From assembly GCA_029882975.1 (NCBI GenBank), contig JAOUJW010000022.1:1-64000 (forward strand): a DNA stretch of 64,000 bases. The letters are read 5' to 3'. The notes beneath the pieces are model-generated. The model ran no database searches. It saw nothing but the letters and a program-made list of their open reading frames with translations, and was not told the DNA's origin. Of this stretch, positions 6,940 to 35,900 are shown in pieces. Position numbers and translations under genes: made by a program. The stretch comes from Gammaproteobacteria bacterium. GTDB taxonomy: Bacteria > Pseudomonadota > Gammaproteobacteria > SZUA-152. Every line of letters starts with the position of its first letter. Position 1 is the first letter of the stretch.

Positions 6940-6942
6940 GAT

Positions 6943-13793: not shown

Positions 13794-13842
13794 AGTTGAC
13801 AATAGGTTTTTCGAGGGATCTAATAAAAGACTTAAACAGGTA

Positions 13843-14078: not shown

Positions 14079-14138
14079 GCTATAACAACCGCAATAACAG
14101 CAAGAGTGATTTTAGTTCGTTTTTCAAGGGAAACGTAT

Positions 14139-15161: not shown

Positions 15162-15236
15162 GCTCCGGACGTTTAACAACTTTAGAATCAGACAATGGTT
15201 TCAGTTTTTAATTTTTCATTTTAAAGGAGGCTTCTC

Positions 15237-15740
15237 GTGGCCAAACCAAGCAGTCAAAAATTTATTGCCCGTAACAGGGCTCCTCGAGTTCAAATCGAAT
15301 ACGATGTGGAACTCTATGGTGCACAGAAGAAAGTCCAGCTTCCGTTTGTAATGGGTGTTATGTCGGATCTTTCCGGTAATCCTGCAGAACCACTTCCCTC
15401 GGTAGAAGATCGTAAAGCCATGGATATTGACGTCGATAATTTTGATGAGCGACTCAAAGCGATGAAGCCTCGTGTGGCTTTCAGTGTTCCCAACACCTTA
15501 ACCGGTGAAGGTAATATGAGCGTTGATATTACCTTCGAAAGCATGGACGACTTTTCCCCTGGTGCCGTCGCCAGAAAAGTAGATGCATTGAGCAAGCTGC
15601 TGGATACCCGTACACAGTTATCCAACTTGGTGACCTATATGGACGGTAAAGCGGGAGCCGAGGATCTTATTGCCAAAGCGCTGGCTGACCCGGAACTTCT
15701 CAAAGCGCTGTCTGCCTCTCCCAATGATGATGCAGAATAA
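15237..15740 (+). CDS. tssB: T6SS contractile sheath small subunit TssB (VipA)
   Basis: 167 residues, starting at GTG 15237 with a very strong Shine-Dalgarno (AAAGGAGG). The sequence shows the conserved TssB blocks SSQKFIARNRAPRVQIEYDV and LPFVMGVMSDLSG. TssB and TssC assemble into the cytoplasmic contractile sheath around the Hcp tube. tssC begins 37 bases downstream. The strong ribosome-binding site fits the high copy number needed for a sheath subunit. Confidence 0.97.
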   Translation: MAKPSSQKFIARNRAPRVQIEYDVELYGAQKKVQLPFVMGVMSDLSGNPAEPLPSVEDRKAMDIDVDNFDERLKAMKPRVAFSVPNTLTGEGNMSVDITFESMDDFSPGAVARKVDALSKLLDTRTQLSNLVTYMDGKAGAEDLIAKALADPELLKALSASPNDDAE

Positions 15741-15777
15741 GTTTTAACGAAATTAATAGAATATTAGGAGCAAGAGA

Positions 15778-17271
15778 ATGGCTGAAGCAGAAACAGAAGC
15801 AGCGGAAAGCGCAGCGGCGGAGAATTTAAGTGTCGACGACTTCTCCGAACTGTTGGGTAAAGAGTTTAAACCCAAGTCCGATCGTGCCAAAGAAGCGGTA
15901 GAGAGCGCAGTTAAAACATTGGCGCAGCAAGCCTTGGAGGAAACCACGGTTATTTCCAATGACGTGATTGCAACCATAAACTCTATCATTGCTGAGATTG
16001 ATCACAAGTTAACGGAACAAGTGAATCTGATTCTTCACAATGAGGAATTCCAGAAATTGGAAGGATCCTGGAGAGGATTGCACTATCTGGTCAATAACAC
16101 CGAATCCGATGAAATGTTGAAAATTAAAGTATTCAACATATCCAAGAAAGAATTGGGTAAGACTTTGAAGAAATTTAAAGGTGCGGCCTGGGATCAAAGC
16201 CCTATCTTCAAGAAATACTATGAAGAAGAATACGGTCAGTTTGGCGGCGAACCCTACGGTTGTATTGTTGGCGACTACTATTTCGATCATGGTCCACAGG
16301 ACGTCGAATTGTTGGGTTCCATTGCTCAGGTGGCAGCAGCGTCTCACGCGCCGTTCATCGCAGGTGCCTCGCCTACAACATTGCAAATGGATTCCTGGCA
16401 GGAAATCAGTAATCCTCGGGACTTGACCAAGATTTTTTCCACTCCGGAATATGCAGGCTGGCGCTCTTTGCGTGAGGCAGATGATTCCAAGTATATCGGT
16501 TTGGCGATGCCGCGCTTTTTATCGCGCTTACCTTACGGTGCTAAAACCGAGCCGGTGGATGAGTTCGACTTTGAAGAGGACACCGAAGGTGCCGATTCCG
16601 GTAAATACACCTGGGCTAATTCAGCCTACGCAATGGCAGTAAACGTCAACCAATCTTTCAAAGAATATGGTTGGTGTTCCCGAATCCGTGGTGTGGAGTC
16701 CGGCGGTGCCGTTTTAGGTTTGCCTACGCATACTTTTCCTACAGATGACGGTGGTGTTGACATGAAATGTCCTACCGAAGTGGCTATTAGCGACCGTCGC
16801 GAAGCGGAATTGGCCAGAAACGGATTTATGCCGTTGATCCACAAAAAGAACTCTGATATCGCCGCATTCATTGGTGCGCAGTCCTTGCAGGCACCGGCCG
16901 AGTACGATGATCCGGATGCTTCTGCCAATGCTGCTCTGGCGGCCCGGTTGCCGTATTTATTCGCCAGTTGCCGATTTGCCCATTATTTAAAATGTATTGT
17001 GCGGGATAAAATCGGTTCCTTTAAGGAAAAAGATGACATGCAACGCTGGTTACAGGATTGGATTAACGCCTATGTTGATGGTGATCCGGTAAATTCCAGT
17101 GAAAACATGAAAGCCAGAAAGCCACTGGCGGGTGCGGAAGTCGTAGTTGAAGAAGTGGAAGGAAATCCCGGATATTACACATCCAAATTCTTTTTACGTC
17201 CCCATTATCAGTTGGAGGGCTTAACCGTTTCCTTGCGTCTGGTGTCTAAATTACCGTCAGCAAAAGGTTAA
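15778..17271 (+). CDS. tssC: T6SS contractile sheath large subunit TssC (VipB)
   Basis: 497 residues, full family length. Conserved blocks include LEGSWRGLHYLV (about 94-105), the acidic loop QFGGEPYGCIVGDYYFDH, and the C-terminal NPGYYTSKFFLRPHYQLEG that binds the sheath core. It forms the contractile sheath with TssB and is disassembled by ClpV after firing. A Shine-Dalgarno (TTAGGAGCAAG) precedes the ATG. The gene is followed by a 136-base gap before hcp. Confidence 0.98.
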   Translation: MAEAETEAAESAAAENLSVDDFSELLGKEFKPKSDRAKEAVESAVKTLAQQALEETTVISNDVIATINSIIAEIDHKLTEQVNLILHNEEFQKLEGSWRGLHYLVNNTESDEMLKIKVFNISKKELGKTLKKFKGAAWDQSPIFKKYYEEEYGQFGGEPYGCIVGDYYFDHGPQDVELLGSIAQVAAASHAPFIAGASPTTLQMDSWQEISNPRDLTKIFSTPEYAGWRSLREADDSKYIGLAMPRFLSRLPYGAKTEPVDEFDFEEDTEGADSGKYTWANSAYAMAVNVNQSFKEYGWCSRIRGVESGGAVLGLPTHTFPTDDGGVDMKCPTEVAISDRREAELARNGFMPLIHKKNSDIAAFIGAQSLQAPAEYDDPDASANAALAARLPYLFASCRFAHYLKCIVRDKIGSFKEKDDMQRWLQDWINAYVDGDPVNSSENMKARKPLAGAEVVVEEVEGNPGYYTSKFFLRPHYQLEGLTVSLRLVSKLPSAKG

Positions 17272-17407
17272 GTGGAAGGAAATGGGTAATATTCACACTT
17301 TGGGTTTTTTTCGTTGTAATCGTGTGTAATTGTAATAAGATATCTCTACGTAAAGCAGTGAATAATACTCAATAAATTTATTAACTACGAACAAAAGGAA
17401 GGCTACG
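17272..17407 (+). promoter_or_regulatory. tssC-hcp intergenic region, probable hcp promoter
   Basis: This AT-rich gap ends in an AAAAGGAAGG Shine-Dalgarno before hcp. It contains AATATTCACA (17288-17297), a half-match to the TGTGAATATTCACA palindrome upstream of vgrG. A separate hcp promoter is plausible because Hcp is usually made in large excess; I cannot place -35/-10 boxes firmly. Confidence 0.4.
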
Positions 17408-17902
17408 ATGGCTGTTGATATGTTTTTAAAATTGGAAGGCACTATCAAAGGTGAATCCAAGGACGAGAAGTACAAAGATGATATTGATATTTTAGCATGG
17501 AGCTGGGGTATGAATCAGTCCGGTTCATTCCACGTCGGTGGCGGCGGTGGTGCCGGTAAGGTAAATATCCAGGACATCTCTATCACCAAATACATTGATG
17601 CTTCTTCTTGTAACTTGATGCAATTCTGTTCCGACGGTACTCACTTCAAAGAAGGCAAACTGGTTGTACGTAAAGCTGGTAAAAAGCCTCTGGAATACGT
17701 TGTTATCAAAATGAAAGACATTCTTGTTACTTCTGTGAGCACTGGCGGCAGCGGTGGTGAAGATCGACTGACAGAAAACGTTACCTTAAACTTTGCACAA
17801 GTTAACGTTGAATACTCTACACAGAAAGAAGACGGTAGTGGCGAACCTTGCAAAGCCTACACATGGAACATCGAATCGAACACGGCGAATACCGATATCT
17901 AA
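17408..17902 (+). CDS. hcp: T6SS tube protein Hcp (TssD)
   Basis: 164 residues of the Hcp1 family: MAVDMFLKLEGTIKGES start, HVGGGGGAGKVNIQD and TKYIDASS blocks, and the final YTWNIESNT beta strand. Hcp forms hexameric rings stacked into the inner tube, and the ring lumen can carry small effectors. No C-terminal toxin extension is present, so this is a structural Hcp. A strong terminator follows 30 bases after the stop, separating its transcript from tagJ and the baseplate genes. Confidence 0.97.
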   Translation: MAVDMFLKLEGTIKGESKDEKYKDDIDILAWSWGMNQSGSFHVGGGGGAGKVNIQDISITKYIDASSCNLMQFCSDGTHFKEGKLVVRKAGKKPLEYVVIKMKDILVTSVSTGGSGGEDRLTENVTLNFAQVNVEYSTQKEDGSGEPCKAYTWNIESNTANTDI

Positions 17903-17932
17903 TCGATTTCCATCATTGATGGTTCGACAAAT

Positions 17933-17958
17933 GGCGCTCAGTTTTCTGAGCGCCTTTT
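17933..17958 (+). terminator. Rho-independent terminator after hcp
   Basis: A nine-pair GC-rich stem (GGCGCTCAG with CTGAGCGCC) closes a TTTT loop and is followed by TTTTGTCGTTT. It probably limits read-through from hcp into tagJ and the baseplate genes. Confidence 0.9.
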
Positions 17959-18093
17959 GTCGTTTGGGGAAAGTGAAATATTTAATAAATAAAAGAGTAT
18001 TATGCAAGAAAAAAAGGGCGCTGTTGCTCAAATAATAGTATTATCATAGGTTCCGGGAACCATATAAACTGAGACTAAGAATTAGGAAGAATA

Positions 18094-18897
18094 ATGACTA
18101 TTGCCGAAGAAAGTCTGCGTAGCGGCGACCTCACCGAAGCGCTGAAACAACTACAGGATCAGGTTAGAAAAGACCCGTCCAATGTTCAGTATCGTATTTT
18201 TCTGTTTCAACTTTTGTGCGTGCTGGGGCAGTGGGACAGAGCGTTAACCCAACTGAATGTGTCCGGCGAGATGGATGCGAGCACTTTGGCGATGGTGCAT
18301 ATGTATCGAGAGGCATTGCAGTGCGAAGCGCTGCGCACGGATATATTTTCCGGTAAACGTACGCCATTGGTTTTTGGGGAGCCGCAACAATGGATTGCTT
18401 TGGTGCTGGAGGCCTTGAAACTTTCCGCCAATGGAAAGCACGCAGAGAGTCAAGCTTTAAGAGAACAGGCTTATGATGTAGCACCCGTGGTTAGCGGCAA
18501 GATCAACGACGAAAGTTTCGAGTGGTTAGCCGACGCAGATTCGCGCATTGGTCCTTTTCTGGAGGCTATCGTCAATGGCAATTATTATTGGATTCCGTTT
18601 CAACGCATTAAAAAAATTAATATCGACGCACCGGAAGATCTGCGTGATATGGTATGGATGCCGGCCTATTTTACATGGGATAACGGTGGTGAGACCGTTG
18701 GATTGATTCCCAGTCGTTATGCAGGATCGGAGGGCAGCGACGATAACGACATACGGTTATGCCGTAAAACACAGTGGGATGAAATGGCAGAGGGGGTTTA
18801 TTATGGAATCGGACAACGATTATTTACCACGGACACTCAAGATGTATCCTTGTTGGATACCAGAACCATTGAATTTGACTTGCCGGAAATCGAATAG
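18094..18897 (+). CDS. tagJ: T6SS accessory protein TagJ (ImpE family)
   Basis: 267 residues matching the ImpE/TagJ family (PF07024). The N-terminal helical, TPR-like half is followed by a C-terminal domain with WIPFQRIKKINI and DLRDMVWMPAYFTW blocks. TagJ binds the N-terminal helix of TssB in Pseudomonas and is thought to modulate sheath handling by ClpV. It occurs only in some T6SS lineages, those using the TssB helix-less ClpV interaction mode. It lies 23 bases before tssE and reads as part of the same transcript. Confidence 0.92.
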   Translation: MTIAEESLRSGDLTEALKQLQDQVRKDPSNVQYRIFLFQLLCVLGQWDRALTQLNVSGEMDASTLAMVHMYREALQCEALRTDIFSGKRTPLVFGEPQQWIALVLEALKLSANGKHAESQALREQAYDVAPVVSGKINDESFEWLADADSRIGPFLEAIVNGNYYWIPFQRIKKINIDAPEDLRDMVWMPAYFTWDNGGETVGLIPSRYAGSEGSDDNDIRLCRKTQWDEMAEGVYYGIGQRLFTTDTQDVSLLDTRTIEFDLPEIE

Positions 18898-18919
18898 CTT
18901 ACAAAGGTAAGGAATCGCT

Positions 18920-19429
18920 ATGGCGGAACTGTCACAAAAAGAACGCTTGCAGCCATCGTTGCTGGATAGGTTGACTGACCGAGATCCGGAACGTAAGGCA
19001 GAATCCCGTACGGAACGGGTGCTGTCCTTGCAACAACTGCGAAAGAGCGTGATTCGCGATATCGGTTGGCTATTGAATACAGACAATTTGTCCTTGGGGC
19101 AGGAGCAAGAAGACTATCCGGAGTTGACTCACTCAGTACTTAACTACGGTATGCCCGACATGTCGGGTACTTCCGTTTCCAACTTGGATAGCGAGGCCCT
19201 GGTGGCCAATATTAAACAGGCCATTATCGATTTTGAACCCAGAATTCTCAAAAACACTATTCGAATCAATTTGGTTGTTGATGACGAAAAAATGAATAAT
19301 AAAGCCGTTTCATTCGAAATTGAGGGCGAGTTGTGGGCTCAACCCACGCCGTTGCGCGTCTATCTGAAAACGGAATTGGACTTGGAAACCGGTAACATAG
19401 ACGTTAGTGATTCGGTTGGGGTGCGCTAA
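18920..19429 (+). CDS. tssE: T6SS baseplate protein TssE (gp25-like)
   Basis: 169 residues with the gp25-like fold (PF04965). The N-terminal LQPSLLDRLTDRDPE block is diagnostic, and the C-terminal half carries IRINLVVDDE and FEIEGELWAQP strands. TssE resembles phage T4 gp25 and helps nucleate the sheath on the baseplate. Its stop codon is immediately followed by the tssF ATG, so the two are translationally coupled. Confidence 0.95.
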   Translation: MAELSQKERLQPSLLDRLTDRDPERKAESRTERVLSLQQLRKSVIRDIGWLLNTDNLSLGQEQEDYPELTHSVLNYGMPDMSGTSVSNLDSEALVANIKQAIIDFEPRILKNTIRINLVVDDEKMNNKAVSFEIEGELWAQPTPLRVYLKTELDLETGNIDVSDSVGVR

Positions 19430-21307
19430 ATGGATCCGCGATTATTACAATATTATAATAGGGAATTGCAGCATATTCGGGAAATGGGGGGTGAATTTGC
19501 GAAAGAATACCCCAAAATAGCCGGGCGCTTGGGTCTGGAAACCTTCGAATGTGCTGATCCCTATGTGGAACGTTTACTTGAAGGGTTTGCTTTTCTGGCA
19601 GCGAGGGTCCAGTTAAAAGTAGATTCGGAATTTCCACAGTTTACCCAGCACATGCTGGAAATGATTTATCCGCAATACTTGTCACCTACTCCTTCCATGG
19701 CGGTAGTACAGTTTAATCCCGATTTAAACGAAAGTGGATTGGCGGAAGGATTTGAGATTCCCCGTAACAGTGTTTTACGGAGTTTGTTGGGCAAAGGTGA
19801 GCAGACGGTTTGCGAATATCGTACGTCCAGTGATATTGCGCTCTGGCCTTTGGAAATCACCAACGCCGAATATTTGACTAACGCCAGTTCATTTGTATCT
19901 TTGGATCAGAAACGTCTTAAAGATGCAAAAGCCGGGGTAAAACTACGCTTGCGGGCAACGGCGGGTCTGACAATAAACAAACTGGCGTTGGAAAAACTGC
20001 CTTTATATTTGCGCGGTAGTGACGAGTTGCCTATGCACCTATATGAGCAGATTCTTGCCAATTCGGTTGCCATAGTCGCCAGGCCGGCAAAGAACCCGGG
20101 TTCCTGGTGTGAGATTATTGATAAACGGTATATTACTCGTACCGGCTTTGAAGACAATGAAGCGGTTTTACCCCAAAGTAATCGATCTTTTCAGGGGTAT
20201 CGCCTGTTACACGAATACTTTACCTTTCCCCAGCGGTTTATGTTTATTGAATTGGGCGGTTTGGGTAAAGCGGTTAAACGCTGCGAGGAAAAAGATCTGG
20301 AGTTGGTCATTTTGTTCGATCGTATTGACCGTTCTCTGGAAGAGTTAGTCAATGCGGGAAATTTCTCCCTACATTGCACGCCGGCTATTAATTTGTTTCC
20401 CAAGCGAGCGGATCGAATCCACTTAAACAACCGCGATCCGGAATTTCATATCGTACCCGATCGAACCCGACCTTTAGACTTCGAAATCTACTCAGTCACC
20501 GAAGCGATTGGGATCGGTACCAGTGCGGACGACGAACAGGAATTCCTGCCGTTCTATGCCGCAACGGATTTAACCATTCATCGTGATGATCAAGCTTATT
20601 ACACCCTCAAGCGGGTGCCGCGTATGCTATCCAGCAAGCAAGTAAGAAAAGGCCCACGTTCCAGCTATATCGGCAGTGAAACGTTTATTTCTTTAGTCGA
20701 TGGAAATAATGCTCCTTACAGGAAAAATCTGCGTCAATTGGCTGTACAGACCATGTGTACCAATCGAGACCTGCCCTTACATATGGCTTTAGGAACGGGC
20801 AAAACAGATTTTACGATGGAGTCCAGCGCGCCGGTTGAGAGCGTGCGTTGTATTGCCGGACCCAGTAAACCCAAAGCGTCACATGCAGAGAAAGCCACAG
20901 CGTGGCGTCTCATCAGTCATTTGTCTCTGAATTATTTGTCCATAGCCGATACCGATGATAAGCAAGGTGCCGCGTCCATGCGGGAGTTGTTGGCCTTGTA
21001 CGGCGATCTGGCTGAATCTCATATTAAAAAGCAAATTGATGGTGTGATTTCAGTTACTGCAAAACCGGTCACTCGCCGGGTGCCCGTACCCGGTCCTATC
21101 ACCTTTGGTCGGGGTATGGAAGTGACGATTACGTTTGATGAAAGCGCTTTTGAAGGTTTGGGGGTGTTTTCATTAGGTGCGGTAATGGAAGAATTTTTTG
21201 CCAAATATGTATCCATTAATTCGTTTACCGAAACGGTGATTCGTACTGCAGAACGGGGGGAGATAATGCGATGGCCAGTAAGAGCCGGTCTGCGTCACAT
21301 CCTTTAG
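19430..21307 (+). CDS. tssF: T6SS baseplate protein TssF (ImpG/VasA)
   Basis: 625 residues, normal for TssF. It begins with the family hallmark LLQYYNRELQHIREMGGEFA and contains the EFPQFTQHMLEMIYPQYL and QFNPD blocks. TssF forms, with TssG and TssE, the wedges of the baseplate on which tube and sheath polymerise. The start ATG abuts the tssE stop and the 3' end overlaps tssG by 37 bases, so tssE, tssF and tssG form a coupled set. Confidence 0.97.
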   Translation: MDPRLLQYYNRELQHIREMGGEFAKEYPKIAGRLGLETFECADPYVERLLEGFAFLAARVQLKVDSEFPQFTQHMLEMIYPQYLSPTPSMAVVQFNPDLNESGLAEGFEIPRNSVLRSLLGKGEQTVCEYRTSSDIALWPLEITNAEYLTNASSFVSLDQKRLKDAKAGVKLRLRATAGLTINKLALEKLPLYLRGSDELPMHLYEQILANSVAIVARPAKNPGSWCEIIDKRYITRTGFEDNEAVLPQSNRSFQGYRLLHEYFTFPQRFMFIELGGLGKAVKRCEEKDLELVILFDRIDRSLEELVNAGNFSLHCTPAINLFPKRADRIHLNNRDPEFHIVPDRTRPLDFEIYSVTEAIGIGTSADDEQEFLPFYAATDLTIHRDDQAYYTLKRVPRMLSSKQVRKGPRSSYIGSETFISLVDGNNAPYRKNLRQLAVQTMCTNRDLPLHMALGTGKTDFTMESSAPVESVRCIAGPSKPKASHAEKATAWRLISHLSLNYLSIADTDDKQGAASMRELLALYGDLAESHIKKQIDGVISVTAKPVTRRVPVPGPITFGRGMEVTITFDESAFEGLGVFSLGAVMEEFFAKYVSINSFTETVIRTAERGEIMRWPVRAGLRHIL

Positions 21308-22335
21308 CTGTTCTACAGTCGCTAAAGGAATCCACCTTGGCATTGCTAAATGCCATCAAAGAAGCGCCCTACAAGTATGGTTTTTTTCAAGCTGTGCGGC
21401 GACTCGAATGTGCCTATAGCGACAAACCACTCATCGGTCAGTCATTAAGGCCGAAAGACGATCCGGTGCGCTTTCAGCAACCACCCTCCTTAGCTTTTGC
21501 TCCCTCCACCCTGTCCCAATTTAGTTTGGGGGAAAAAGGGCGCCCGCCTAAGTTGAGTATCAATTTCTTCGGCTTGTTCGGACCGCAAGGGCCTTTACCG
21601 TTGCATTTAACCGAATACGCCTACGATCGGGCATTGAATTCCAGTGATACCACCTTTGCTGGATTTGCCGATATGTTTCATCATCGCATGATTTCGCTGT
21701 ATTACCGCGCCTGGGCCAATACCCAGCCCACCGTGAGCTATGATCGACCGCAAGCGGATCGATTTTCCGCCTATGTGGGTTCCATTATGGGTTTTGGTTT
21801 GACCAGCCTGCGTAATCGTGAAGAATTACCGGACCGAGTTAAGTTGTTTTACGCCGGCTTGTTGGCGAGTCAAACTCGCAATGCCAGTAATTTGCAGGCT
21901 ATGATCAGCAGTTTTTTTCAAGTAAACGCTCGGATTGAACAGTTTGTGGGGCAGTGGATGGAACTGCCGAAGGAATGCCGCATGTTGTTGGGGATTACCC
22001 GGGAGACCTGCACTTTGGGTGTAAATGCGGCCGTGGGTAACAAAGCCTGGGAAAGTCAGCAAAAGTTTCGCATTGTGTTGGGCCCATTGTCCAAAGAGGA
22101 ATATTTGCGCATGCTACCCGGAGGGGAAAGTATTAAGCGGTTGCAGACTTTGGTAAGAGCCTATGTGGGTGATGAGTTTGATTGGGACATGCAGTTGATT
22201 ATGAAAAAGGAAAGCATGCCCATGTTTCGTTTGGGTATAAATGGGGATTTGGGGTGGACGACTCGTGTATGGAGCAGGACCATAGAAAGGGATGTGGACC
22301 GTTTGATTATTCACCCCGGAAAAATCCGCAAATGA
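21271..22335 (+). CDS. tssG: T6SS baseplate protein TssG (ImpH/VasB)
   Basis: 354 residues. Family blocks YGFFQAVRRLECAY, RPKDDPVRFQQ and NFFGLFGPQGPLPLHLTEYA are all present (PF06996). TssG pairs with two TssF copies in each baseplate wedge. The start at 21271 lies inside the last codons of tssF; the alternative is a slightly later codon, but the MASKSRS start is reasonable. clpV begins 21 bases downstream. Confidence 0.97.
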   Translation: MASKSRSASHPLAVLQSLKESTLALLNAIKEAPYKYGFFQAVRRLECAYSDKPLIGQSLRPKDDPVRFQQPPSLAFAPSTLSQFSLGEKGRPPKLSINFFGLFGPQGPLPLHLTEYAYDRALNSSDTTFAGFADMFHHRMISLYYRAWANTQPTVSYDRPQADRFSAYVGSIMGFGLTSLRNREELPDRVKLFYAGLLASQTRNASNLQAMISSFFQVNARIEQFVGQWMELPKECRMLLGITRETCTLGVNAAVGNKAWESQQKFRIVLGPLSKEEYLRMLPGGESIKRLQTLVRAYVGDEFDWDMQLIMKKESMPMFRLGINGDLGWTTRVWSRTIERDVDRLIIHPGKIRK

Positions 22336-22356
22336 ATTGTTTAGAAGGGTAGAGAT

Positions 22357-25077
22357 ATGGCAGAAATAAATCGTGTCGCGTTGTTTGGTAAGTTAAACAG
22401 CTTGGGGTATAAGGCCATTGAGAGTGCCACCGTATTTTGCAAAATGCGCGGTAATCCCTATGTGGAATTGGTTCACTGGTTCCATCAAATATTGCAATTG
22501 CAGAACTCCGATTTACATCGGATTATTAAGCAGTTCAATATTGATCCGGCCAGAATTGCCAAGGATTTCACTGAATCACTGGATAAACTGCCCCGCGGTT
22601 CTACCTCGATTTCCGATTTGTCTTCCCATGTGGAGGAGGCGGTGGAAAGGGGTTGGGTTTATGCCACATTAATGTTTGGCGAATCCCAGGTGCGTTCCGC
22701 TTATTTAATGGTTGGCATTTTGAAAACTCCCTCTTTGCGTCGCGCCCTGTACTCCATTTCCTCGGAGTTCGAAAAAATCAATGTGGATACCTTGATTGAT
22801 CGATTTGAGGAAGTCGTGAGTGGTTCACCGGAAGAAAGTCTCAGGGCTACAGACGGTTTTCAAGTGGGTGGTGGGGCGGCTCCGGGTGAAGCCAGTGGTG
22901 CTATCGCCCCGGCTCAAATGGGCAAGCAGGAAGCCTTACAGCAGTATACCGTTGACCTTACAGCACAAGCTCGTACCGGAGAGATGGATCCCATTGTGGG
23001 GCGGGACGAAGAAATCCGCCAAGTGGTGGATATATTGATGCGCAGGCGTCAAAACAACCCCATCTTAACCGGCGAAGCCGGTGTCGGTAAAACGGCAGTA
23101 GTGGAAGGTTTTGCACAAAAAATCGTGGCCGGTGACGTGCCGCCGCCTTTGCAGGACGTCACTCTGCGCACTCTGGATATTGGTTTGTTGCAAGCAGGCG
23201 CCAGTATGAAAGGAGAATTTGAAAACCGACTCAAACAGGTGATTGAGGAAGTTCAGTCTTCAGAGAAACCCATAATACTTTTTATCGATGAAGCCCATAC
23301 CTTGATTGGTGCCGGTGGTGCTGCCGGAACCGGTGATGCGGCCAATCTACTCAAACCGGCCTTAGCGCGGGGCACCTTGCGAACCGTTGCAGCGACCACG
23401 TGGGCCGAATACAAAAAGCATATTGAAAAGGATCCGGCACTGACACGGCGTTTTCAAGTAGTTCAAGTGGATGAGCCCAGCGAAGAAAAAGCCATCTTAA
23501 TGATGCGCGGTTTAACCTCCACGCTGGAACGGCACCACAAAGTCCAAATTCTGGATGAAGGCATAGAAGCAGCCGTAGTGCTTTCACACCGTTATATTCC
23601 GGCGCGACAGTTGCCTGACAAGTCGGTGAGTTTGCTGGATACGGCCAGTGCTCGGGTAGCCATCAGCCAATATGCCGTGCCCGCAGAGGTTGATGATTGC
23701 CGCAAGCGTATTTGCGCATTGGAAACAGAGTTGGAAATCATCGCCCGAGAGAATGCCATTGGCGTTGATACCAGCGCCCGCAAAGCCGAAGCAGAAGACA
23801 AGTTACAGCAGGAAAAACAACGGTTGGAAGGACTGGAACATCGCTGGCAAACTGAAAAAGAGCTGGTGGACAATATATTAAACATCCGGGCTCAACTTCG
23901 GGGTGATAACAACAAAGTGGATGGTACGGACAGCGATTTGGAAGCGGCAGCGGATAAACACACCAAGTCCGAACTGAGTGAGGCGGACCGCGCCGGTTTA
24001 AAGGAACAACTGCAGTCCTTAACCCAGCAGTTGCTGGAACTGCAAGGGGAGAGCCCCTTGATTCTACCCAGTGTGGATGAGCAAGCGGTGGCTTCGGTCG
24101 TGGGGGACTGGACCGGAATTCCCGTGGGCAAGATGGTAAAAGACGAAGTCGCCACGGTATTGGGTTTGGCGGATTCAATTAACGAGCGCGTGATCGGCCA
24201 AAAGCACGCCTTGGACATGATTGCCAAACGAGTACAGACTTCGCGTGCTAACTTGGACAACCCCAATAAGCCCATAGGTGTGTTTATGCTTTGCGGACCG
24301 TCCGGAGTGGGTAAAACAGAAACCGCCCTGGCTTTGGCTGAAGCTCTGTATGGCGGCGAACAAAATGTTATCACCATTAATATGAGCGAATTCCAGGAAG
24401 CACATACGGTATCCACTCTCAAAGGTGCACCTCCCGGTTATGTGGGGTACGGAGAAGGCGGAGTCTTAACCGAAGCGGTAAGACGTAAACCCTATAGTGT
24501 GGTGTTATTGGATGAAGTGGAAAAAGCACATTCTGACGTTCACGAAATCTTCTTTCAGGTATTTGATAAAGGCGTGATGGAAGATGGGGAAGGGCGTTTA
24601 ATCGATTTCAAAAACACGCTGATATTGCTAACTTCCAATGTTGGCAGTGAATTGATAATGAATATGTGCAAAGACCCGGAGTTACTTCCGGAACCGGAAG
24701 GAATCGCCAAAGCTCTGCGTGAACCATTGTTGAAAGTATTTCCTGCTGCTTTACTCGGGCGTTTGGTTACCATACCGTATTTTCCATTGAGCGACGCCAT
24801 GGTAGCCAACATTACTCGCCTGCAACTGTCCAGAATCGAATCTCGTATTGCTGAGAACCACAAAGTACCGTTTACTTACGACGAGAATGTGGTGGAGTTA
24901 ATCGGCAAACGCTGTACCGAGCTTGAAAGCGGCGGGCGTATGATCGATGCCATTCTCACCAACACGATGCTACCGGAAATCAGTAAAGCGTTTCTGGGGC
25001 GAATGATGGATGGCAAAACGGTGGAGCGGGTGCATGTGGGTGTAGATGCCAGTGAGTTCAGTTATCAATTTGATTAG
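22357..25077 (+). CDS. clpV: T6SS sheath-recycling AAA+ ATPase ClpV (TssH)
   Basis: 906 residues. An N-terminal Clp-N domain (about 1-160) precedes AAA1 with Walker A GEAGVGKT (239-246) and Walker B ILFIDEAH, a coiled-coil middle region (about 440-580), and AAA2 with Walker A GPSGVGKT and VVLLDEVEKAH. Both ATPase sites look intact. ClpV binds contracted TssB/TssC sheath and threads TssC for disassembly, so the subunits can be reused. It closes the core structural set; the next genes concern the spike. Confidence 0.97.
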   Translation: MAEINRVALFGKLNSLGYKAIESATVFCKMRGNPYVELVHWFHQILQLQNSDLHRIIKQFNIDPARIAKDFTESLDKLPRGSTSISDLSSHVEEAVERGWVYATLMFGESQVRSAYLMVGILKTPSLRRALYSISSEFEKINVDTLIDRFEEVVSGSPEESLRATDGFQVGGGAAPGEASGAIAPAQMGKQEALQQYTVDLTAQARTGEMDPIVGRDEEIRQVVDILMRRRQNNPILTGEAGVGKTAVVEGFAQKIVAGDVPPPLQDVTLRTLDIGLLQAGASMKGEFENRLKQVIEEVQSSEKPIILFIDEAHTLIGAGGAAGTGDAANLLKPALARGTLRTVAATTWAEYKKHIEKDPALTRRFQVVQVDEPSEEKAILMMRGLTSTLERHHKVQILDEGIEAAVVLSHRYIPARQLPDKSVSLLDTASARVAISQYAVPAEVDDCRKRICALETELEIIARENAIGVDTSARKAEAEDKLQQEKQRLEGLEHRWQTEKELVDNILNIRAQLRGDNNKVDGTDSDLEAAADKHTKSELSEADRAGLKEQLQSLTQQLLELQGESPLILPSVDEQAVASVVGDWTGIPVGKMVKDEVATVLGLADSINERVIGQKHALDMIAKRVQTSRANLDNPNKPIGVFMLCGPSGVGKTETALALAEALYGGEQNVITINMSEFQEAHTVSTLKGAPPGYVGYGEGGVLTEAVRRKPYSVVLLDEVEKAHSDVHEIFFQVFDKGVMEDGEGRLIDFKNTLILLTSNVGSELIMNMCKDPELLPEPEGIAKALREPLLKVFPAALLGRLVTIPYFPLSDAMVANITRLQLSRIESRIAENHKVPFTYDENVVELIGKRCTELESGGRMIDAILTNTMLPEISKAFLGRMMDGKTVERVHVGVDASEFSYQFD

Positions 25078-25242
25078 TCATCTACAAAATAGGATAATCT
25101 GATCTATATTTATTGTTAATTAACAATGGCATACAATGGGCTCATCAACGAGACTTTAAGGTTGGATTCGGAGTCGCTTGTGAAAGGAGAGAGAGCTTCT
25201 GTATGTCATTGAATATTAACAAAAATAGGAGCATAAGGCCAC

Positions 25243-25527
25243 ATGCGTCGCGCTAAAATGACTGAAGTCAACTATTACGATTTTCGAGTGCAGTTGCAAA
25301 GAGCAACTGATCGGGGCTGCCGTATCGAAAGGGGTGATGGTGACAAGTGGAAAGAATACATCAGAGATAACGACATAAAGGAAGTGGCTGCGGTTTCTAT
25401 AGGTAATGCACAATTTGAAAAAGTAAAGCCCGTCGTGATTAACTGCAACGGCAGTTGGGACGGGTTTTATGTCTATTCGGAGGATGCCGAAGCTGTACTC
25501 AAATGGCAGCATGAAGCCGACGGTTAA
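25243..25527 (+). CDS. Small conserved-looking hypothetical protein between clpV and vgrG
   Basis: 94 residues, charged and without signal peptide or membrane segment, so probably cytoplasmic. An AGGAG motif sits ten bases before the ATG, supporting translation. The sequence begins MRRAKMTEVNYYDFRVQLQR and has a central DKWKEYIRDNDIKEV segment. I do not recognise the family. It sits between clpV and vgrG on the same strand, a place where adaptors, immunity proteins or regulators are often found, but nothing in the sequence decides between these. Confidence 0.75.
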   Translation: MRRAKMTEVNYYDFRVQLQRATDRGCRIERGDGDKWKEYIRDNDIKEVAAVSIGNAQFEKVKPVVINCNGSWDGFYVYSEDAEAVLKWQHEADG

Positions 25528-25551
25528 GGACGGCTAAGGACAGTTAAGTTA

Positions 25552-25565
25552 TGTGAATATTCACA
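25552..25565. promoter_or_regulatory. Perfect palindrome TGTGAATATTCACA upstream of vgrG
   Basis: A 14-base perfect palindrome lies about 245 bases before vgrG. Similar sequences lie upstream of tssA (13782-13793) and, as a half-site, hcp (17288-17297). Candidate operator for a dimeric regulator common to the T6SS units. Confidence 0.5.
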
Positions 25566-25639
25566 TACACTCTATTTCTCGTTGCTGTATTTCCCATCGA
25601 TAGTAGAATCTATTCCAATAACGCAGTTCGTCGAATTGG

Positions 25640-25656
25640 TCAATATTTGATCAGTT
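25640..25656. promoter_or_regulatory. Motif TCAATATTTGATCAGTT shared with the tssA promoter
   Basis: Sixteen of 17 bases match 13847-13863 upstream of tssA. In both places it follows a GTGAAwATTCACA-type palindrome, by 65 and about 87 bases respectively, and precedes the gene start by 170-290 bases. Confidence 0.5.
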
Positions 25657-25657
25657 G

Positions 25658-25671
25658 GTTCAGGCCTGAAC
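25658..25671. promoter_or_regulatory. Perfect palindrome GTTCAGGCCTGAAC upstream of vgrG
   Basis: A 14-base perfect palindrome directly follows the shared motif. It has no copy in the tssA promoter, so it may be a vgrG-specific operator or chance. Confidence 0.35.
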
Positions 25672-25809
25672 TTAATTGGGTCAAGACTTGAAAGGGTCAC
25701 GCCCAGGTCCGTCACTTGGCACAAGAATAAATCCGGCGGTCCCAGGCGAAATTCAATAATCGAAGATTGAACAGCCCTGTAACTGGTTTTAGGGTGAAGG
25801 AAAGCTAGA

Positions 25810-27624
25810 ATGCCATTAAGAGGATCATTGGGAATTTCCACGCCGTTAGGTGATGATGTCTTACAGCTGTATAGTTTGAATGGAACTGAAACGCTGGGGC
25901 GTTTATTCCAATACGAATTGGAGTTACTCAGTAAGGATGACAACATCGACCTGGACAAGATACTGGCGCAACGCGTCACGATCAAGGTTACACTCCTGGA
26001 TAACAGCACACGCCATATAGACGGTTACGTCTGCGAGTTCAGTCAAACCGGTAACCGAGGCAACTATTCCGCCTACCGAGCAGTGATTCGTCCCTGGCTT
26101 TGGTTTTTAACTCGAACCTCCGATTGTCGCATTTTCCAAGAAATGAAAGTTCCGGATATTATCAAACAGGTGTTCCGTGATTTGGGGTATTCGGATTTTG
26201 AAGACACCCTGAGTGGTAATTATCGCAAATGGGATTACTGTGTTCAGTATCGAGAGTCAGACTACAATTTCATCAGCCGATTGATGGAGCAGGAAGGCAT
26301 CTATTACTACTTCAAACATACGGAAGGCAAACACACGTTGGTACTTTCCGATTCCATCAGCTCACATCAGACTTTTTCGGGCTACGAAGAAATTCCTTAT
26401 TTCCCACCGCAAGAGCGTGCGAATCGGGAACGGGATCATATAGATGGTTGGATGCTGACCCGCGAAGTGCATCCGGGTATAGTGGCTTTAAACGCATATG
26501 ATTTTGAAAAACCAAAAGTGGATTTGGCCGCCAAATCCAGCATCATTCGTTCTCATGATGTGGCAGATTACGAAATCTATGATTATCCCGGTGAGTATAT
26601 AGAACACTCCGATGGTGATAATTATGCGCAGATACGAGTACAGGAATTACAAGCCAAATTTGAGAAATCTACGGCAACGGCGAATGCCAGAGGTGTCGCT
26701 ACCGGAAGTTTGTTTAAGTTAACGCAATTTACCCGAGCAGATCAGAATCGGGAATATTTGATTATCTCCACGCAATATGAAATGCGGGCTGCCGGATTTG
26801 AAAGCGGTGGTTCGGTATCCGAAGAAGACACTTTCCAATGCACCTTCAAAGCGATGGACAGTCACACCCAATTTCGATCACCTCGAATTACCCCTAAGCC
26901 GGTGGTACAGGGACCCCAAACGGCAGTCGTGGTTGGGAAAGCCGGTGAAGAAATTTGGACGGATAAATACGGCCGTGTCAAAGTTCAATTTCACTGGGAC
27001 CGCTATGGAAAATCCGATGAAAACAGCTCTTGCTGGGTTCGGGTGGCTCAAGTGTGGGCGGGCAAGCGTTGGGGCGCTATGCATATTCCACGTATGGGGC
27101 AGGAAGTCATTGTGGATTTTCTCGAAGGCGACCCGGATCGACCGATTATTACCGGTCGCGTGTACAACGCCGACAATATGCCTCCGTATGATTTGCCTGC
27201 CAACAAAACGCAAAGCGGCGTAAAGAGCAGAAGTTCCAAGAGCGGCACCGATGCCAACTTTAATGAAATTCGTTTTGAGGATCTCAAGGGCAAGGAGCAG
27301 CTCTATATCCATGCGGAGAAGGATCAAGACAACATTGTTGAAAACAATGAAACCACAGACGTGGGCAAAGACCGAACCGAAAAAGTCGGCAATAACGAAA
27401 AGATCACAATTGGAAAAAACAAAACTGATGATGTCGGCACAGACTACTCCATCAAGGTAGGCAAAAATACCGTGATAGATTCCGGTGACTCGATTGTATT
27501 TAAAACCGGTAGCGCCAGCATCATTATGAAAAAAGACGGCAAGATACAAATTAAAGGTTCAGATATTCTTATCAAAGCCAGTGGCAATATTAAGCTCAAA
27601 GGCTCCAAAATATCTGAAAATTAG
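25810..27624 (+). CDS. vgrG: T6SS spike protein VgrG (TssI)
   Basis: 604 residues, a structural VgrG without added toxin domain. The gp27-like N-terminal half (about 1-370) has YRESDYNFISRLMEQEGIYYYF. It is followed by the gp5 OB-fold with KYGRVKVQFHWDRYGK and CWVRVAQVWAGKRWGA (about 383-430). A C-terminal beta-helix needle of short repeats (EKVGNNEKITIGKNK type, about 500-604) ends the protein. VgrG trimers cap the Hcp tube and pierce the target. Effectors must therefore bind non-covalently, probably through the adaptors encoded just downstream. Confidence 0.97.
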   Translation: MPLRGSLGISTPLGDDVLQLYSLNGTETLGRLFQYELELLSKDDNIDLDKILAQRVTIKVTLLDNSTRHIDGYVCEFSQTGNRGNYSAYRAVIRPWLWFLTRTSDCRIFQEMKVPDIIKQVFRDLGYSDFEDTLSGNYRKWDYCVQYRESDYNFISRLMEQEGIYYYFKHTEGKHTLVLSDSISSHQTFSGYEEIPYFPPQERANRERDHIDGWMLTREVHPGIVALNAYDFEKPKVDLAAKSSIIRSHDVADYEIYDYPGEYIEHSDGDNYAQIRVQELQAKFEKSTATANARGVATGSLFKLTQFTRADQNREYLIISTQYEMRAAGFESGGSVSEEDTFQCTFKAMDSHTQFRSPRITPKPVVQGPQTAVVVGKAGEEIWTDKYGRVKVQFHWDRYGKSDENSSCWVRVAQVWAGKRWGAMHIPRMGQEVIVDFLEGDPDRPIITGRVYNADNMPPYDLPANKTQSGVKSRSSKSGTDANFNEIRFEDLKGKEQLYIHAEKDQDNIVENNETTDVGKDRTEKVGNNEKITIGKNKTDDVGTDYSIKVGKNTVIDSGDSIVFKTGSASIIMKKDGKIQIKGSDILIKASGNIKLKGSKISEN

Positions 27625-27657
27625 TCTAAGGATCTGGTTTTACTGCGGTAACTAAAA

Positions 27658-28719
27658 GTGACATTTAAAGGTATAGAAAACAGCACACCCTTTAGTACGG
27701 AAATGACACTTTTGTGCGACGACCGGGGGCGTGAAGTGATGGTCGTATATGCCAAAGCCACATTTGATATAACAGATGCGCGCACAATCAAATTGGCACC
27801 CGAGCAGGTGCCGCTGAATATGGCAGGTGAATACCTGGACGAGCCGGGCAAATCCAGCATGACTTGCGCACCCGAATGCAGTTTCATAAAGCTGGGTACG
27901 GATGTAGCGTTATTGGGACATGCCCATGCTCCGGGCGGGCAGGAAGTGTGCGAACTGGAAGTATTTTTCCGGGTTGGGCCGGTCAGCAAACGCGTACATG
28001 TGTTTGGAGATCGCCATTGGCACTATCAGGAACACGACGGCCAAGCTCATTGGGTCATGGGTGAAACTCAAGGGTTTACCAGCATGCCCTTGGTTTATGA
28101 GCGGGCTTTCGGTGGTTTCGATGACTCTGCCGAAGATGAAAAAGATCATGAGGTAAGTGATTACAATCCCATTGGCACCGGGTTAATCGCAAAAAGAACC
28201 GCCTATAAGGATCCTGTGGCGCTGCCAAATCTGGAACACCCGGACTATTTGATCGGCAGCGTAGATGATCGGCCGCCGCCGGCAAATTTCGGTTTTATCG
28301 GACCGGATTGGGAGCCACGACGGCAGTTGGCAGGCAACTATGATGCGGAATGGGAAAAGACCCGCAGTCCTTTGCTACCGTTGGACTTTAATCACTGGTT
28401 TTTTAACGCTGCTCACCCGGACTTGCGTGTTTCCGGTTACTTGCGTGGTAATGAAACGATAGAAGTCATTAATGCATCCGCTTTGGGGGCCTTAAACCTG
28501 GAACTGCCGGGGTATAAACCCATGGTGACCTTGGATTTGTTGGGTCGTCGACGCATGAAGCTGGAGTGTATGATGGACAGCTTGACAGTCAATACAGATA
28601 CCAACAACGTACAGGTGCTATGGCGGGCCGAGTTAGACGTATCGAAACTGCTAAACCATATGGAAACAGTGAAAATTAGTTTGGCGAAACTGAAAACCGA
28701 TAAGAATTTGGCAGCCTGA
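27658..28719 (+). CDS. DUF2169 family T6SS adaptor-like protein
   Basis: 353 residues starting at GTG 27658. The sequence matches DUF2169 proteins (PF09937): STPFSTEMTLLCDDRGREVM at the N-terminus, VFGDRHWH and MPLVYERAFGG in the middle, and FNHWFFNAAHPDL and GNETIEV near the C-terminus. DUF2169 proteins are encoded beside vgrG, PAAR-like and toxin genes and are thought to load effectors onto the spike, as in Proteus, Vibrio and others. It lies 33 bases after vgrG. The client effector is not evident in this cluster. Confidence 0.9.
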   Translation: MTFKGIENSTPFSTEMTLLCDDRGREVMVVYAKATFDITDARTIKLAPEQVPLNMAGEYLDEPGKSSMTCAPECSFIKLGTDVALLGHAHAPGGQEVCELEVFFRVGPVSKRVHVFGDRHWHYQEHDGQAHWVMGETQGFTSMPLVYERAFGGFDDSAEDEKDHEVSDYNPIGTGLIAKRTAYKDPVALPNLEHPDYLIGSVDDRPPPANFGFIGPDWEPRRQLAGNYDAEWEKTRSPLLPLDFNHWFFNAAHPDLRVSGYLRGNETIEVINASALGALNLELPGYKPMVTLDLLGRRRMKLECMMDSLTVNTDTNNVQVLWRAELDVSKLLNHMETVKISLAKLKTDKNLAA

Positions 28720-28730
28720 GGAGAAACAGT

Positions 28731-29162
28731 GTGGGTGTAACCGTTGGGGTAAATTCTCGATCCGTGGTGCATAAAGGTAGTAGCGGGATTACGCCGTGTT
28801 TCCCGGACGTCTGCTTGACCCAATGCGGACCGCCGGTAGTACCCATACCGTACCCCAATATTGCCGTCTCAAAGGATACAGCCAAGGGCAGTAAGACTGT
28901 CAAATGCGATGGTAATCCCATTTGTTTGAAGGATTCCAATTTTAGTAAAAGTACCGGTGATGAACCCGGGTCTCATAAAGGCGTGGCCTCAGGTACGATC
29001 AAACAAAAAGCGGAGTTTGTGACTTGGTCCTTTGATACTTTTGTAGAAGGTAAGAATGTAGAACGGGCGTTTGACCAGATGGTGCACAACAATAAAAATA
29101 CGGCGCCGTTTCCGGTAATACAAATACCCATTATTGTCATAATGCCGGAAATTCAGCCCTGA
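28731..29162 (+). CDS. DUF4150 PAAR-like spike-tip protein
   Basis: 143 residues from GTG 28731, 11 bases after the DUF2169 gene. It shows the DUF4150 signature: VNSRSVVHKGSSGITPCFPDVCLT, followed by IPYPNIAVSKDTAKG and the Cys-containing VKCDGNPICLKDS block. DUF4150 (PF13665) folds as a PAAR-like cone that sharpens VgrG. Many family members carry C-terminal toxin domains; this one stops after about 40 extra residues, so it appears to be a toxin-free tip. Confidence 0.9.
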   Translation: MGVTVGVNSRSVVHKGSSGITPCFPDVCLTQCGPPVVPIPYPNIAVSKDTAKGSKTVKCDGNPICLKDSNFSKSTGDEPGSHKGVASGTIKQKAEFVTWSFDTFVEGKNVERAFDQMVHNNKNTAPFPVIQIPIIVIMPEIQP

Positions 29163-29198
29163 CCGGCGCCAGGAAAAACGTAAGAAAAGGTGAATCCC

Positions 29199-29777
29199 AT
29201 GAAATCACAAGTCAATAAAACCGGTATGCACAAGACCAGCACCAAGACTTTAGAATCAGAACCGCTGATGGAAGTGTTGAACAAGCCTGTACGTTCCAGT
29301 TATCGAGTGCCCATTCATCAAGAGGACAACCAAAGTTTTAACGGTACAGTAATTGGTGAAATCATTGCCTTGGAAGATAGCAACGGTACTGCGGAAGTGT
29401 TTGTGACTTATCCCAACAGCCCCTATCGGTCACCGTTATTGGCTTTGACTACGGTGGACATCAGAAAAAGTGACTTGGGTAAACACGTGGCCTTGTCTTT
29501 TGATCAAGCTGATCCGTCACGGCCGATTATAATGGGGATTATTAAAAACTCCCAACGGGTAAAAGAACTGGAGCTGGATAGTCAGGATCAAGCACTTAGT
29601 GCATCCTTGGATGGTGATGTGGTAGCTTTGAATGCGGATAAAGAAATTGTACTTAAATGCGGTAAATCCAGTATTACTCTCACCAAAGCCGGTAAAATAA
29701 TTATTCGTGGCGAATACATTGTAAGTCGGTCCACGGGTGTTAACAGCATTAAAGGCGGTTCAGTGAAAATAAATTAA
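29199..29777 (+). CDS. DUF6484-like protein with VgrG-type needle C-terminus
   Basis: The preferred start is ATG 29199 (MKSQVNKTG) with AAAAGG about eight bases upstream, giving 192 residues; GTG 29190 is the alternative. Residues 45-115 form an OB-like domain (GEIIALEDSNGTAEVFVTYP ... DPSRPIIMGII) that matches what I know of DUF6484. The C-terminus (SSITLTKAGKIIIRGEYI ... SIKGGSVKI) aligns by eye with the final VgrG needle (ASIIMKKDGKIQIKGSDI). It may cap or decorate the spike. Position in the vgrG block supports a T6SS role; the exact function is unknown. Confidence 0.8.
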   Translation: MKSQVNKTGMHKTSTKTLESEPLMEVLNKPVRSSYRVPIHQEDNQSFNGTVIGEIIALEDSNGTAEVFVTYPNSPYRSPLLALTTVDIRKSDLGKHVALSFDQADPSRPIIMGIIKNSQRVKELELDSQDQALSASLDGDVVALNADKEIVLKCGKSSITLTKAGKIIIRGEYIVSRSTGVNSIKGGSVKIN

Positions 29778-29886
29778 ACAGATATAGCTATTGCTGTGTT
29801 CTGTGTAACGTTATTCACTATAACAATAATAAATACGATTACTATAAAGCCTGTAAACACTTAAAAGACGGAATCGGAATGTTGTA

Positions 29887-31110
29887 ATGTCACAGGAAAT
29901 ATTAAGAAAGCACGCCGAACAATTTGCTGAAGGTTCCTCGTTTCTTTGGCTGTTGCGGGAACTGGCTTTACGTTCACCCAATTACAATATTCACGATCTG
30001 GCTGAGTTAGATGAACGTATCGAAGCCCACCTGGACGGATTGCGCGCGGCAGGTACTATTGCCTGGGAGATTTGCGAAGAAGAGTTGGCTTGGGAAGAGG
30101 CCGGAGAGGTATTTACCGCGGCCGCCGTAGCCTATTCGATTCAAGACGACAAAGCTATCGATCGGGTACTGCAAGTCGCTACTCAATCAGTGGTTTTATC
30201 CAAGGGTATGTCATCGGCATTGGCCTGGATGGGCAAAGAGGCATCCATGCCTTATATCGAATCCATGATTCAGTCCGAAGAGTCCATAATTAAACGTATG
30301 GGAGTGTCGGCCGCTTCCATACAGCGAATTGATTTGGGTGAAAAATTAAATAAACTCATAGAAAACGGTGACCCCATTGTTGCCGGTCGGGCAATCAAAG
30401 CAGTGGGCGAATTGGGGCGAGTGGATCTGCTTGATGCGTGTCTTGCCAATTTGCAACACGAGGATCCCTATCAACGATATTGGGCAGCCTGGTCTTCAAC
30501 CTTATTGGGGGATCGTTCCAAACCGATTGCTGTTTTAAGTAAGTTTGATCAAATGGAACCCTTGCACGCAGAGAGAGCTTGTGAATTGATGGGGCGCAGT
30601 ATGAGCCTGGAAAAAGCGCAGGAATGGTTAAAAGTCTTGGCTGCGGAAGAACAGTATCGACGTTTGGCGGTGATATTTGCCGGTTCCGTAGGCACCCCCG
30701 TTCTGATACCCTGGTTGATCAATATGATGACTATAGAGGAATTAAGTCGCGTAGCCGGTTCTGCGTTTACGGCCATCACCGGTGCAGATATTGTGGATAA
30801 TCAACTGGCGGGTGACGTGCCCGATTTTGTAGCTGCCGAACCCAATGAAGATCCCAAGGACGAAAATGTGGCTATGGATGCGGATGAAGATCTGGCCTGG
30901 CCCGATGTAAACAAAGTCTCTCATTGGTGGGCCGAGCATAAGGGTAATTTCGATATGCATACCCGATATTTGTTTGGCTACCCTATAGAGAATAAAAATC
31001 TCGAAACCGTTCTGGCTGTTGCCAAACAGCCTCAGCGTTGGTCAGCCGCTATGGAATCCGCTTTATCCTCACCTCATCAACCCTTGATAGAAATTCGGAC
31101 TCGTCAATAG
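29887..31110 (+). CDS. TIGR02270-like HEAT-repeat protein
   Basis: 407 residues, cytoplasmic, mostly helical with HEAT-like repeats. Blocks FLWLLRELALRSPNYNIHDLAELDERIEAHLDGLR and the C-terminal WPDVNKVSHWWAEHKGNF match proteins named TIGR02270, which are often encoded with DUF2169, DUF4150 and vgrG. The second block includes a GSAFTAITGADI segment. The family has no defined activity that I know. Its place at the end of the spike block suggests a role in effector loading or immunity. Confidence 0.82.
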   Translation: MSQEILRKHAEQFAEGSSFLWLLRELALRSPNYNIHDLAELDERIEAHLDGLRAAGTIAWEICEEELAWEEAGEVFTAAAVAYSIQDDKAIDRVLQVATQSVVLSKGMSSALAWMGKEASMPYIESMIQSEESIIKRMGVSAASIQRIDLGEKLNKLIENGDPIVAGRAIKAVGELGRVDLLDACLANLQHEDPYQRYWAAWSSTLLGDRSKPIAVLSKFDQMEPLHAERACELMGRSMSLEKAQEWLKVLAAEEQYRRLAVIFAGSVGTPVLIPWLINMMTIEELSRVAGSAFTAITGADIVDNQLAGDVPDFVAAEPNEDPKDENVAMDADEDLAWPDVNKVSHWWAEHKGNFDMHTRYLFGYPIENKNLETVLAVAKQPQRWSAAMESALSSPHQPLIEIRTRQ

Positions 31111-35062: not shown

Positions 35063-35151
35063 TTATAGAATAAAGTAATATTCAAATCATCGACGGACTT
35101 ACTACTGCCCCCCTTGCTCTTAAAGCTGAACAAGTAAACATCATACCGCAC
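35063..35151 (-). pseudogene. Possible truncated ORF after the immunity-like gene
   Basis: From GTG 35151, overlapping the preceding stop by 11 bases, about 30 codons read like a protein start (MRYDVYLFSFKSKGG ... DDLNITLF). The frame then runs into the TAGCGGAC repeat. It may be a gene fragment cut off by that repeat, or a chance reading. The frame stays formally open into cmoB, where it is clearly a shadow. Confidence 0.3.
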
Positions 35152-35323
35152 TGATATTTTGTTTTTGAATATTTTCTAATTGCTCAATGATATCCTCTAT
35201 GGCCATTATGTCGTGGTAATCGTCACCCATTTCTTCATCGTCACGGTCTGTTAACTCTTTGAGATGTCTTCTTAATGAAATTAGCACGTAGTTAAGCTGC
35301 TTTGGGCTAAGGTCTATATTCAT
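35141..35323 (-). CDS. Small acidic helical protein, candidate immunity protein or antitoxin
   Basis: 60 residues, strongly acidic in the middle (TDRDDEEMGDDYHD), predicted by eye as two or three amphipathic helices (KQLNYVLISLRRHLKEL and IMAIEDIIEQLENIQKQ). An AGAGAG Shine-Dalgarno precedes the ATG. It starts 18 bases after the repaired end of a broken toxin-like gene on the same strand. In size, acidity and the MNxxLxPxxL start it recalls Tsi2, the immunity protein of Tse2, but the similarity is weak. It is intact while its presumed toxin partner is not, as expected if immunity is retained longer than the toxin. Confidence 0.65.
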   Translation of the reverse strand: MNIDLSPKQLNYVLISLRRHLKELTDRDDEEMGDDYHDIMAIEDIIEQLENIQKQNISAV

Positions 35324-35341
35324 ATTTTCTCTCTGATTTTG

Positions 35342-35900
35342 TTATTTTCCAAATACGTCTGAACTTGCTTTTTCAAAATTAATCAATGCAACAAGTTCCA
35401 GGAATGCCCTGACGGTTTTTTCGCTTTTTACGGTTAAGGTGCAATGTCCCGGTGGCTTCCGTCATAGACAAGTTCCAATCCTGCCGGGATGGATTGACCG
35501 TGTTCTATTTTCCACCAAAATTGTTTCTAACATTGGAGTAGGTGTTTTTGTATGCTTTTTTCGCAGAGCCGGTCATCGGTCCTGGACCAATCCAAACAAA
35601 AGATTTAGGAAACATTTTTTTGATAAACATTGATAAACCTTGGCCGGGTTTTACGGTAAAACTATCCAGGTCTTGCTCCTCGATCCTACCTTCTTGTGTA
35701 TCTACCCCTATATCAAACCATCGTAAATAATCTGCTCCTGGGGCGTTTTTCCCTCCGGAACGAATTGAATCTTCGTTCAATGCTACATCAGTCGACCACA
35801 ATATCGTTCCAGGAACAATGTTTTTCGATTAGATATATGCAAGCACTTCGTCTGTCGAATATATCTCTCTAGAAGCACGATCTGTTGCCGGATCTCCCAT
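35342..35900 (-). pseudogene. Degraded Tse2-like toxin gene (one nonsense codon, two frameshifts)
   Basis: An excellent Shine-Dalgarno (AGGAGGGAAA) precedes ATG 35900 and MGDPATDRASREIYSTDEVL. Codon 24 is TAA (35829-35831), after which the same frame continues (SKNIVPGTILWSTDVALN) for about 100 codons. One base appears lost in an A4 run (35517-35520, T4 on the coding strand), and the next frame gives FWWKIEHGQSIPAGLELVYDG. A second base appears lost in the C3 run 35448-35450, and the third frame gives SHRGHCTLTV and a stop at 35342. The restored protein has about 186 residues. PGQGLSMF, the WW...IPAGLEL segment and the GHCTLTV segment follow in the order seen in Tse2-type ADP-ribosyltransferase-like toxins. 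That family call is from memory and tentative; the lesions are read directly. Confidence 0.6.

What the first reader, a model, noticed from the sequence alone, without database searches (positions are those of the whole stretch)
35141..35900. Decayed Tse2-like toxin with an adjacent intact immunity-like gene
Seen: a strong Shine-Dalgarno and ATG at 35900 (minus strand) open a gene with a TAA at codon 24. Two one-base deletions, in the runs at 35517-35520 and 35448-35450, are each restored by one added base. The restored product has about 186 residues and ends 18 bases before a 60-residue acidic helical ORF. Known: Tse2 is a T6SS toxin with an ADP-ribosyltransferase-like fold and Tsi2 is a small acidic helical immunity protein. 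Inference: PGQGLSMF, then WWKIEHGQSIPAGLEL, then GHCTLTV follow the Tse2-family order. So this could be a T6SS effector/immunity pair about 4 kb from a complete T6SS, with the toxin dead and immunity kept.
Basis: partly seen in the sequence, partly recalled or inferred. Interest (0 to 1): 0.75.

Follow-up and report, generated by a model that had tools for sequence, protein, structure and literature searches.

The report
Dead Tse2-like toxin, immunity gene kept
Next to a complete bacterial injection apparatus (type VI secretion) lies the broken remains of a Tse2-family toxin gene followed by a still-open small gene that looks like its protective partner, a real but ordinary case of 'weapon lost, shield kept'.

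Summary
On the minus strand a Shine-Dalgarno and ATG at 35900 open a frame that stops at codon 24. Reading then continues with two frame changes up to 18 bases before an intact 60-codon ORF (35323-35141). The central piece matches a profile of ten Tse2 homologues from the same bacterial family at 20.3 bits, the only real hit in the six-frame window; its one Pfam match is Tse2 (PF18648), at the right place. The flanking pieces are weak but fall in order on the same profile. The same genome holds a second, intact Tse2 gene with an overlapping 59-codon ORF. In 13 of 13 Tse2-like loci of this genome and its relatives a small ORF sits directly downstream. The 60-residue ORF is predicted to be a two-helix hairpin whose first PDB matches are Tsi2, though the E-values are not significant. 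All 13 core T6SS genes lie in the window, 4 kb away. Best reading: a pseudogenised Tse2 effector with a retained, Tsi2-like, probably orphan immunity gene. It is a new member of a known kind. Retention by selection is not shown.

The parts
35832..35900 (-). 5' end of the broken Tse2-like toxin gene: 23 codons from ATG, closed by TAA (35831-35829)
   Evidence: strong Shine-Dalgarno AAGGAGGG just upstream
35508..35828 (-). second piece of the toxin gene, 107 codons, holding the GQGLSMF motif; weak match to Tse2 profile positions 48-78
   Evidence: 2.4% of shuffles reach the score, 0.7% at the same place
35437..35526 (-). third piece (other frame), WWKIEHGQSIPAGLELVYD; match to Tse2 profile positions 76-98, and PF18648 positions 83-108
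   Evidence: 20.3 bits; PF18648 E 0.023, the only Pfam match
35345..35461 (-). fourth piece (third frame), GHCTLTV..., weak match to Tse2 profile positions 105-125; ends in TAA 35344-35342
35141..35323 (-). intact 60-codon ORF, acidic (net charge -8), predicted antiparallel two-helix hairpin: Tsi2-like immunity gene
2843..31110 (.). complete type VI secretion gene cluster (TssA-TssM incl. Hcp and VgrG, Fha, TagF, TagJ/ImpE, DUF2169, DUF6484, HEAT protein)

Best explanation
The locus is a former effector-immunity operon of the neighbouring T6SS. Its first gene encoded a Tse2-family cytoplasmic toxin and is now a pseudogene with one stop and two frame changes. Its second gene, 60 codons, is intact and encodes a Tsi2-like helical hairpin. 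Intact, the pair would work like Tse2/Tsi2: the toxin is exported by the T6SS into neighbouring bacteria, and the immunity protein binds it through an acidic face and protects the producer. As it stands the cell can no longer fire this toxin. If the small gene is expressed, it can still neutralise the same toxin arriving from kin or neighbours, that is, orphan immunity. Shown: sequence state of both genes, family of the toxin remnant, T6SS nearby, consistent gene order in relatives. Inferred: export by this T6SS, binding and protection, selection for keeping the immunity gene.
For: Unmended pieces match a Tse2 profile in order, the central one at 20.3 bits. PF18648 is the only Pfam hit of the central piece and falls at the right profile place. 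An intact PF18648 gene (29.5 bits, above cut-off) with an overlapping 59-aa ORF lies on another contig of the same genome. In all 13 Tse2-like loci of 6 genomes a small ORF follows directly. One relative's pair sits inside a T6SS cluster between two tssC genes. The family profile hits the solved Tse2 chain 5ako_C at 4e-13. The 60-aa ORF model is a two-helix hairpin (pLDDT 85.6; helices 7-27 and 34-59), and the first four Foldseek hits are all Tsi2. Published Tsi2 has helices 4-26 and 30-62 and is strongly acidic (PMC3325213). The window holds all 13 core T6SS genes.
Against: No sequence search links the 60-aa ORF to Tsi2, and the Foldseek E-values are about 1, as for any helical hairpin; ribosomal protein chains score alike. 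Its similarity to the other small ORFs is weak (10.7 bits, 5 of 2000 shuffles as high). No intact copy of this exact pair was found in any collection searched, so neither selection nor an ancestral state can be measured. The lesions rest on one assembly.
Confidence: 0.82

Rival explanations
1. The whole operon is decaying after loss of use; the 60-codon ORF is open only because it is short and has not yet been hit. No protective function remains.
For: Three lesions in about 560 bp predict about one in 183 bp, so none is unremarkable for one locus (inference from lengths). No close homologue exists to measure selection. The same-genus genome has no trace of the pair next to cmoB.
Against: The ORF keeps host-like codon usage and a foldable hairpin. 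The four other broken or truncated toxin copies in the family also keep an open downstream ORF.
Confidence: 0.3
2. The lesions are sequencing or assembly errors and the pair is intact and active.
For: Two of the three are one-base changes in or near short runs; a single draft assembly of 59 contigs.
Against: Three errors within 560 bp while some 28 kb of T6SS genes read open at full length; one lesion is an in-frame stop without a frame change.
Confidence: 0.1
3. The pieces are chance ORFs and the Tse2 resemblance is coincidental.
For: The flanking pieces alone are not significant (1.0-1.6 bits) and PF18648 itself does not find the largest piece.
Against: Central piece unique in the window at 20.3 bits; order along the profile; Shine-Dalgarno; operon geometry like that of 13 other loci.
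Confidence: 0.03

Closest known systems
Tse2-Tsi2 effector-immunity pair of Pseudomonas aeruginosa (H1-T6SS; PDB 5ako, 3rq9)
   Same: Toxin family (profile of relatives hits 5ako_C at 4e-13), small acidic two-helix partner immediately downstream, a T6SS with Fha, TagF and TagJ in the genome
   Different: Toxin is a pseudogene here; immunity ORF is 60 residues and not recognisable as Tsi2 by sequence; the pair lies 4 kb from the T6SS cluster
Intact Tse2-like pair of the same genome (contig C8, L001)
   Same: Same motif order, same downstream small acidic ORF, with a 4-base overlap
   Different: Intact; a different and distant allele; not beside the window's T6SS
Orphan T6SS immunity genes (e.g. 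Vibrio cholerae arrays, PMC5361080)
   Same: Immunity gene kept where the matching effector has been lost
   Different: Here the effector remains in place as a pseudogene rather than being displaced by another module; no array

Membership tests
Tse2 toxin family (PF18648) | Sequence match to the family model | tested here: met
   Central piece alone: PF18648 E 0.023 (15.7 bits, below the 26.6-bit cut-off, as expected for 30 aa), only Pfam hit, right place; clade-specific profile 20.3 bits. The largest piece alone gives no Pfam hit.
Tse2 toxin family (PF18648) | Intact ADP-ribosyltransferase-like toxin domain in one reading frame | tested here: not met
   Stop at codon 24 and two frame changes: a pseudogene of the family, not a working member
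Tse2 toxin family (PF18648) | Immunity gene directly downstream | tested here: met
   60-codon ORF 18 bases downstream, same strand; same geometry in 13 of 13 other loci
Tsi2 immunity family | Antiparallel two-helix hairpin, strongly acidic | tested here: met
   Model helices 7-27 and 34-59, pLDDT 85.6, net charge -8; top Foldseek hits are Tsi2, E not significant
Tsi2 immunity family | Detectable sequence homology to Tsi2 | tested here: not met
   No Pfam, NCBIfam or PDB sequence match. Filed only as Tsi2-like.
Tsi2 immunity family | Binds the toxin and protects | not testable with these tools
   Needs a co-expression or binding assay
T6SS effector | A T6SS in the genome that exports it | tested here: inconclusive
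   All 13 core genes present in the window; export by it not testable here
Orphan T6SS immunity gene | Intact immunity gene without a functional cognate effector | tested here: met
   that the ORF is an immunity gene is itself inferred, and expression and selection are not tested

The most novel reading that the evidence does not exclude
This bacterial lineage repeatedly acquires Tse2-like pairs, then inactivates the toxin and keeps the partner as a stock of immunity against kin. Five of 14 Tse2-like loci seen (window, L003, L006, L011, L013) have a broken or 5'-truncated toxin, each with an open downstream ORF.
Probability: 0.25. Interest if true: 0.45.

Novelty: new member of a known kind. 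Interest (0 to 1): 0.3.

Why it matters
It adds a clean example of effector decay in place with the immunity gene left standing, from a poorly sampled gammaproteobacterial family. It shows that Tse2-type pairs with very diverse partners are common there: 13 further loci in 6 of 24 genomes, six of them in one genome. That set could be used to test whether orphan immunity is kept by selection and how Tse2 partners diverge while keeping a helical fold.

Tried and rejected
Direct PF18648 search of the own genome did not find the window locus; the largest piece alone matches nothing in Pfam or the PDB. The 60-aa ORF alone has no relative in viral contigs, plasmids or the family's genomes beyond coiled-coil-like noise. 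The 107-aa piece has no close relative in the GTDB genome contigs, the family, a class sample or plasmids. A pattern search with the Tse2 alignment was impossible because no stretch is conserved enough. CmoB relatives gave no clear name for the host (top matches 51-60% in many gammaproteobacteria). A codon-usage scan supports the immunity ORF but is too weak to follow the toxin frame changes.

Full report
Observation. On the minus strand a strong Shine-Dalgarno precedes an ATG at 35900. The frame stops at codon 24, is open again for 107 codons (35828-35508), and continues in a second frame (35526-35437) and a third (35461-35345). The third frame's stop lies 18 bases before the ATG of an intact 60-codon ORF (35323-35141).

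Handling. All comparisons used the separate pieces as they stand.

Toxin family. Searching the window's own genome with PF18648 found an intact gene above the curated cut-off on another contig (C8, L001), overlapped by a 59-codon acidic ORF. The taxonomic family (24 genomes, the same set as the order) holds 12 PF18648 matches in 6 genomes, and a clade profile finds one more. A profile of ten of these, built without the window, hits the solved P. aeruginosa Tse2 chain at E 4e-13.

Match of the pieces. The same profile hits the window's central piece at 20.3 bits over positions 76-98; the next best of 2849 six-frame pieces in the window has 4.7 bits. The piece before it aligns to positions 48-78 and the piece after it to 105-125, that is, in order. 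Each is weak alone, but only 0.7% and 0.07% of shuffles do as well at the same place. PF18648 is also the only Pfam family that the central piece touches, at positions 83-108. The remnant is therefore best read as a Tse2-family pseudogene.

Partner gene. In all 13 Tse2-like loci outside this one the next gene on the same strand is a small ORF, overlapping or within about 30 bases. The ten partners scored are all net negative. They are very diverse. The window's ORF scores 10.7 bits against a profile of those ten; 5 of 2000 shuffles do as well. No sequence search reaches Tsi2.

Partner fold. A single-sequence AlphaFold2 model is a confident two-helix hairpin with helices 7-27 and 34-59 (mean pLDDT 85.6). 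Of 350,542 PDB chains the first four Foldseek hits are Tsi2 structures, but E-values are near 1 and ribosomal hairpins follow closely. Published Tsi2 is a strongly acidic antiparallel hairpin with helices 4-26 and 30-62, whose acidic patch binds Tse2 (PMC3325213). I therefore call the ORF Tsi2-like, not a proven Tsi2.

Context. The window carries all 13 core T6SS genes plus Fha, TagF and TagJ/ImpE, between 2843 and 31110; the pair starts 4 kb further on, convergent with cmoB. In the same-genus genome G001 another gene follows cmoB and no remnant is there. The pair is AT-richer than its surroundings (GC 0.42 and 0.37 against 0.46 for the window). Acquisition and later decay fit both facts; loss in G001 is not excluded. 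In one relative (G010) an intact pair sits inside a T6SS cluster between two tssC genes, which ties the family to T6SS in this clade.

Is immunity kept by selection? The ORF has host-like codon usage, and four other broken or truncated toxin copies in the clade (L003, L006, L011, L013) also have an open downstream ORF. But the ORF is short, no close relative exists for a dN/dS test, and the relatives are mostly fragmented draft assemblies. This step remains inference.

Verdict. Orphan immunity beside lost T6SS effectors is known, for example in Vibrio cholerae (PMC5361080). This is a new member of that kind.

Noticed in passing
L001:1292-1884 (G000 contig C8:173910-176977): Second, intact Tse2-family gene with overlapping 59-codon acidic ORF in the same genome, away from the window's T6SS
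   Followed up: yes
L125:5676-10182 (G010:C170): Intact Tse2-like pair lying between two different tssC genes of a T6SS cluster in a relative
   Followed up: partly
L009, L011, L006, L013, L012, L039 (all G019): One genome carries six Tse2-like loci, three of them broken or truncated
   Followed up: partly
window 4321-6012: 563-codon ORF inside the T6SS cluster between Fha and TagF without a Pfam match
   Followed up: no
window 43577-49276: Bacterial alpha-2-macroglobulin gene (1899 aa)
   Followed up: no
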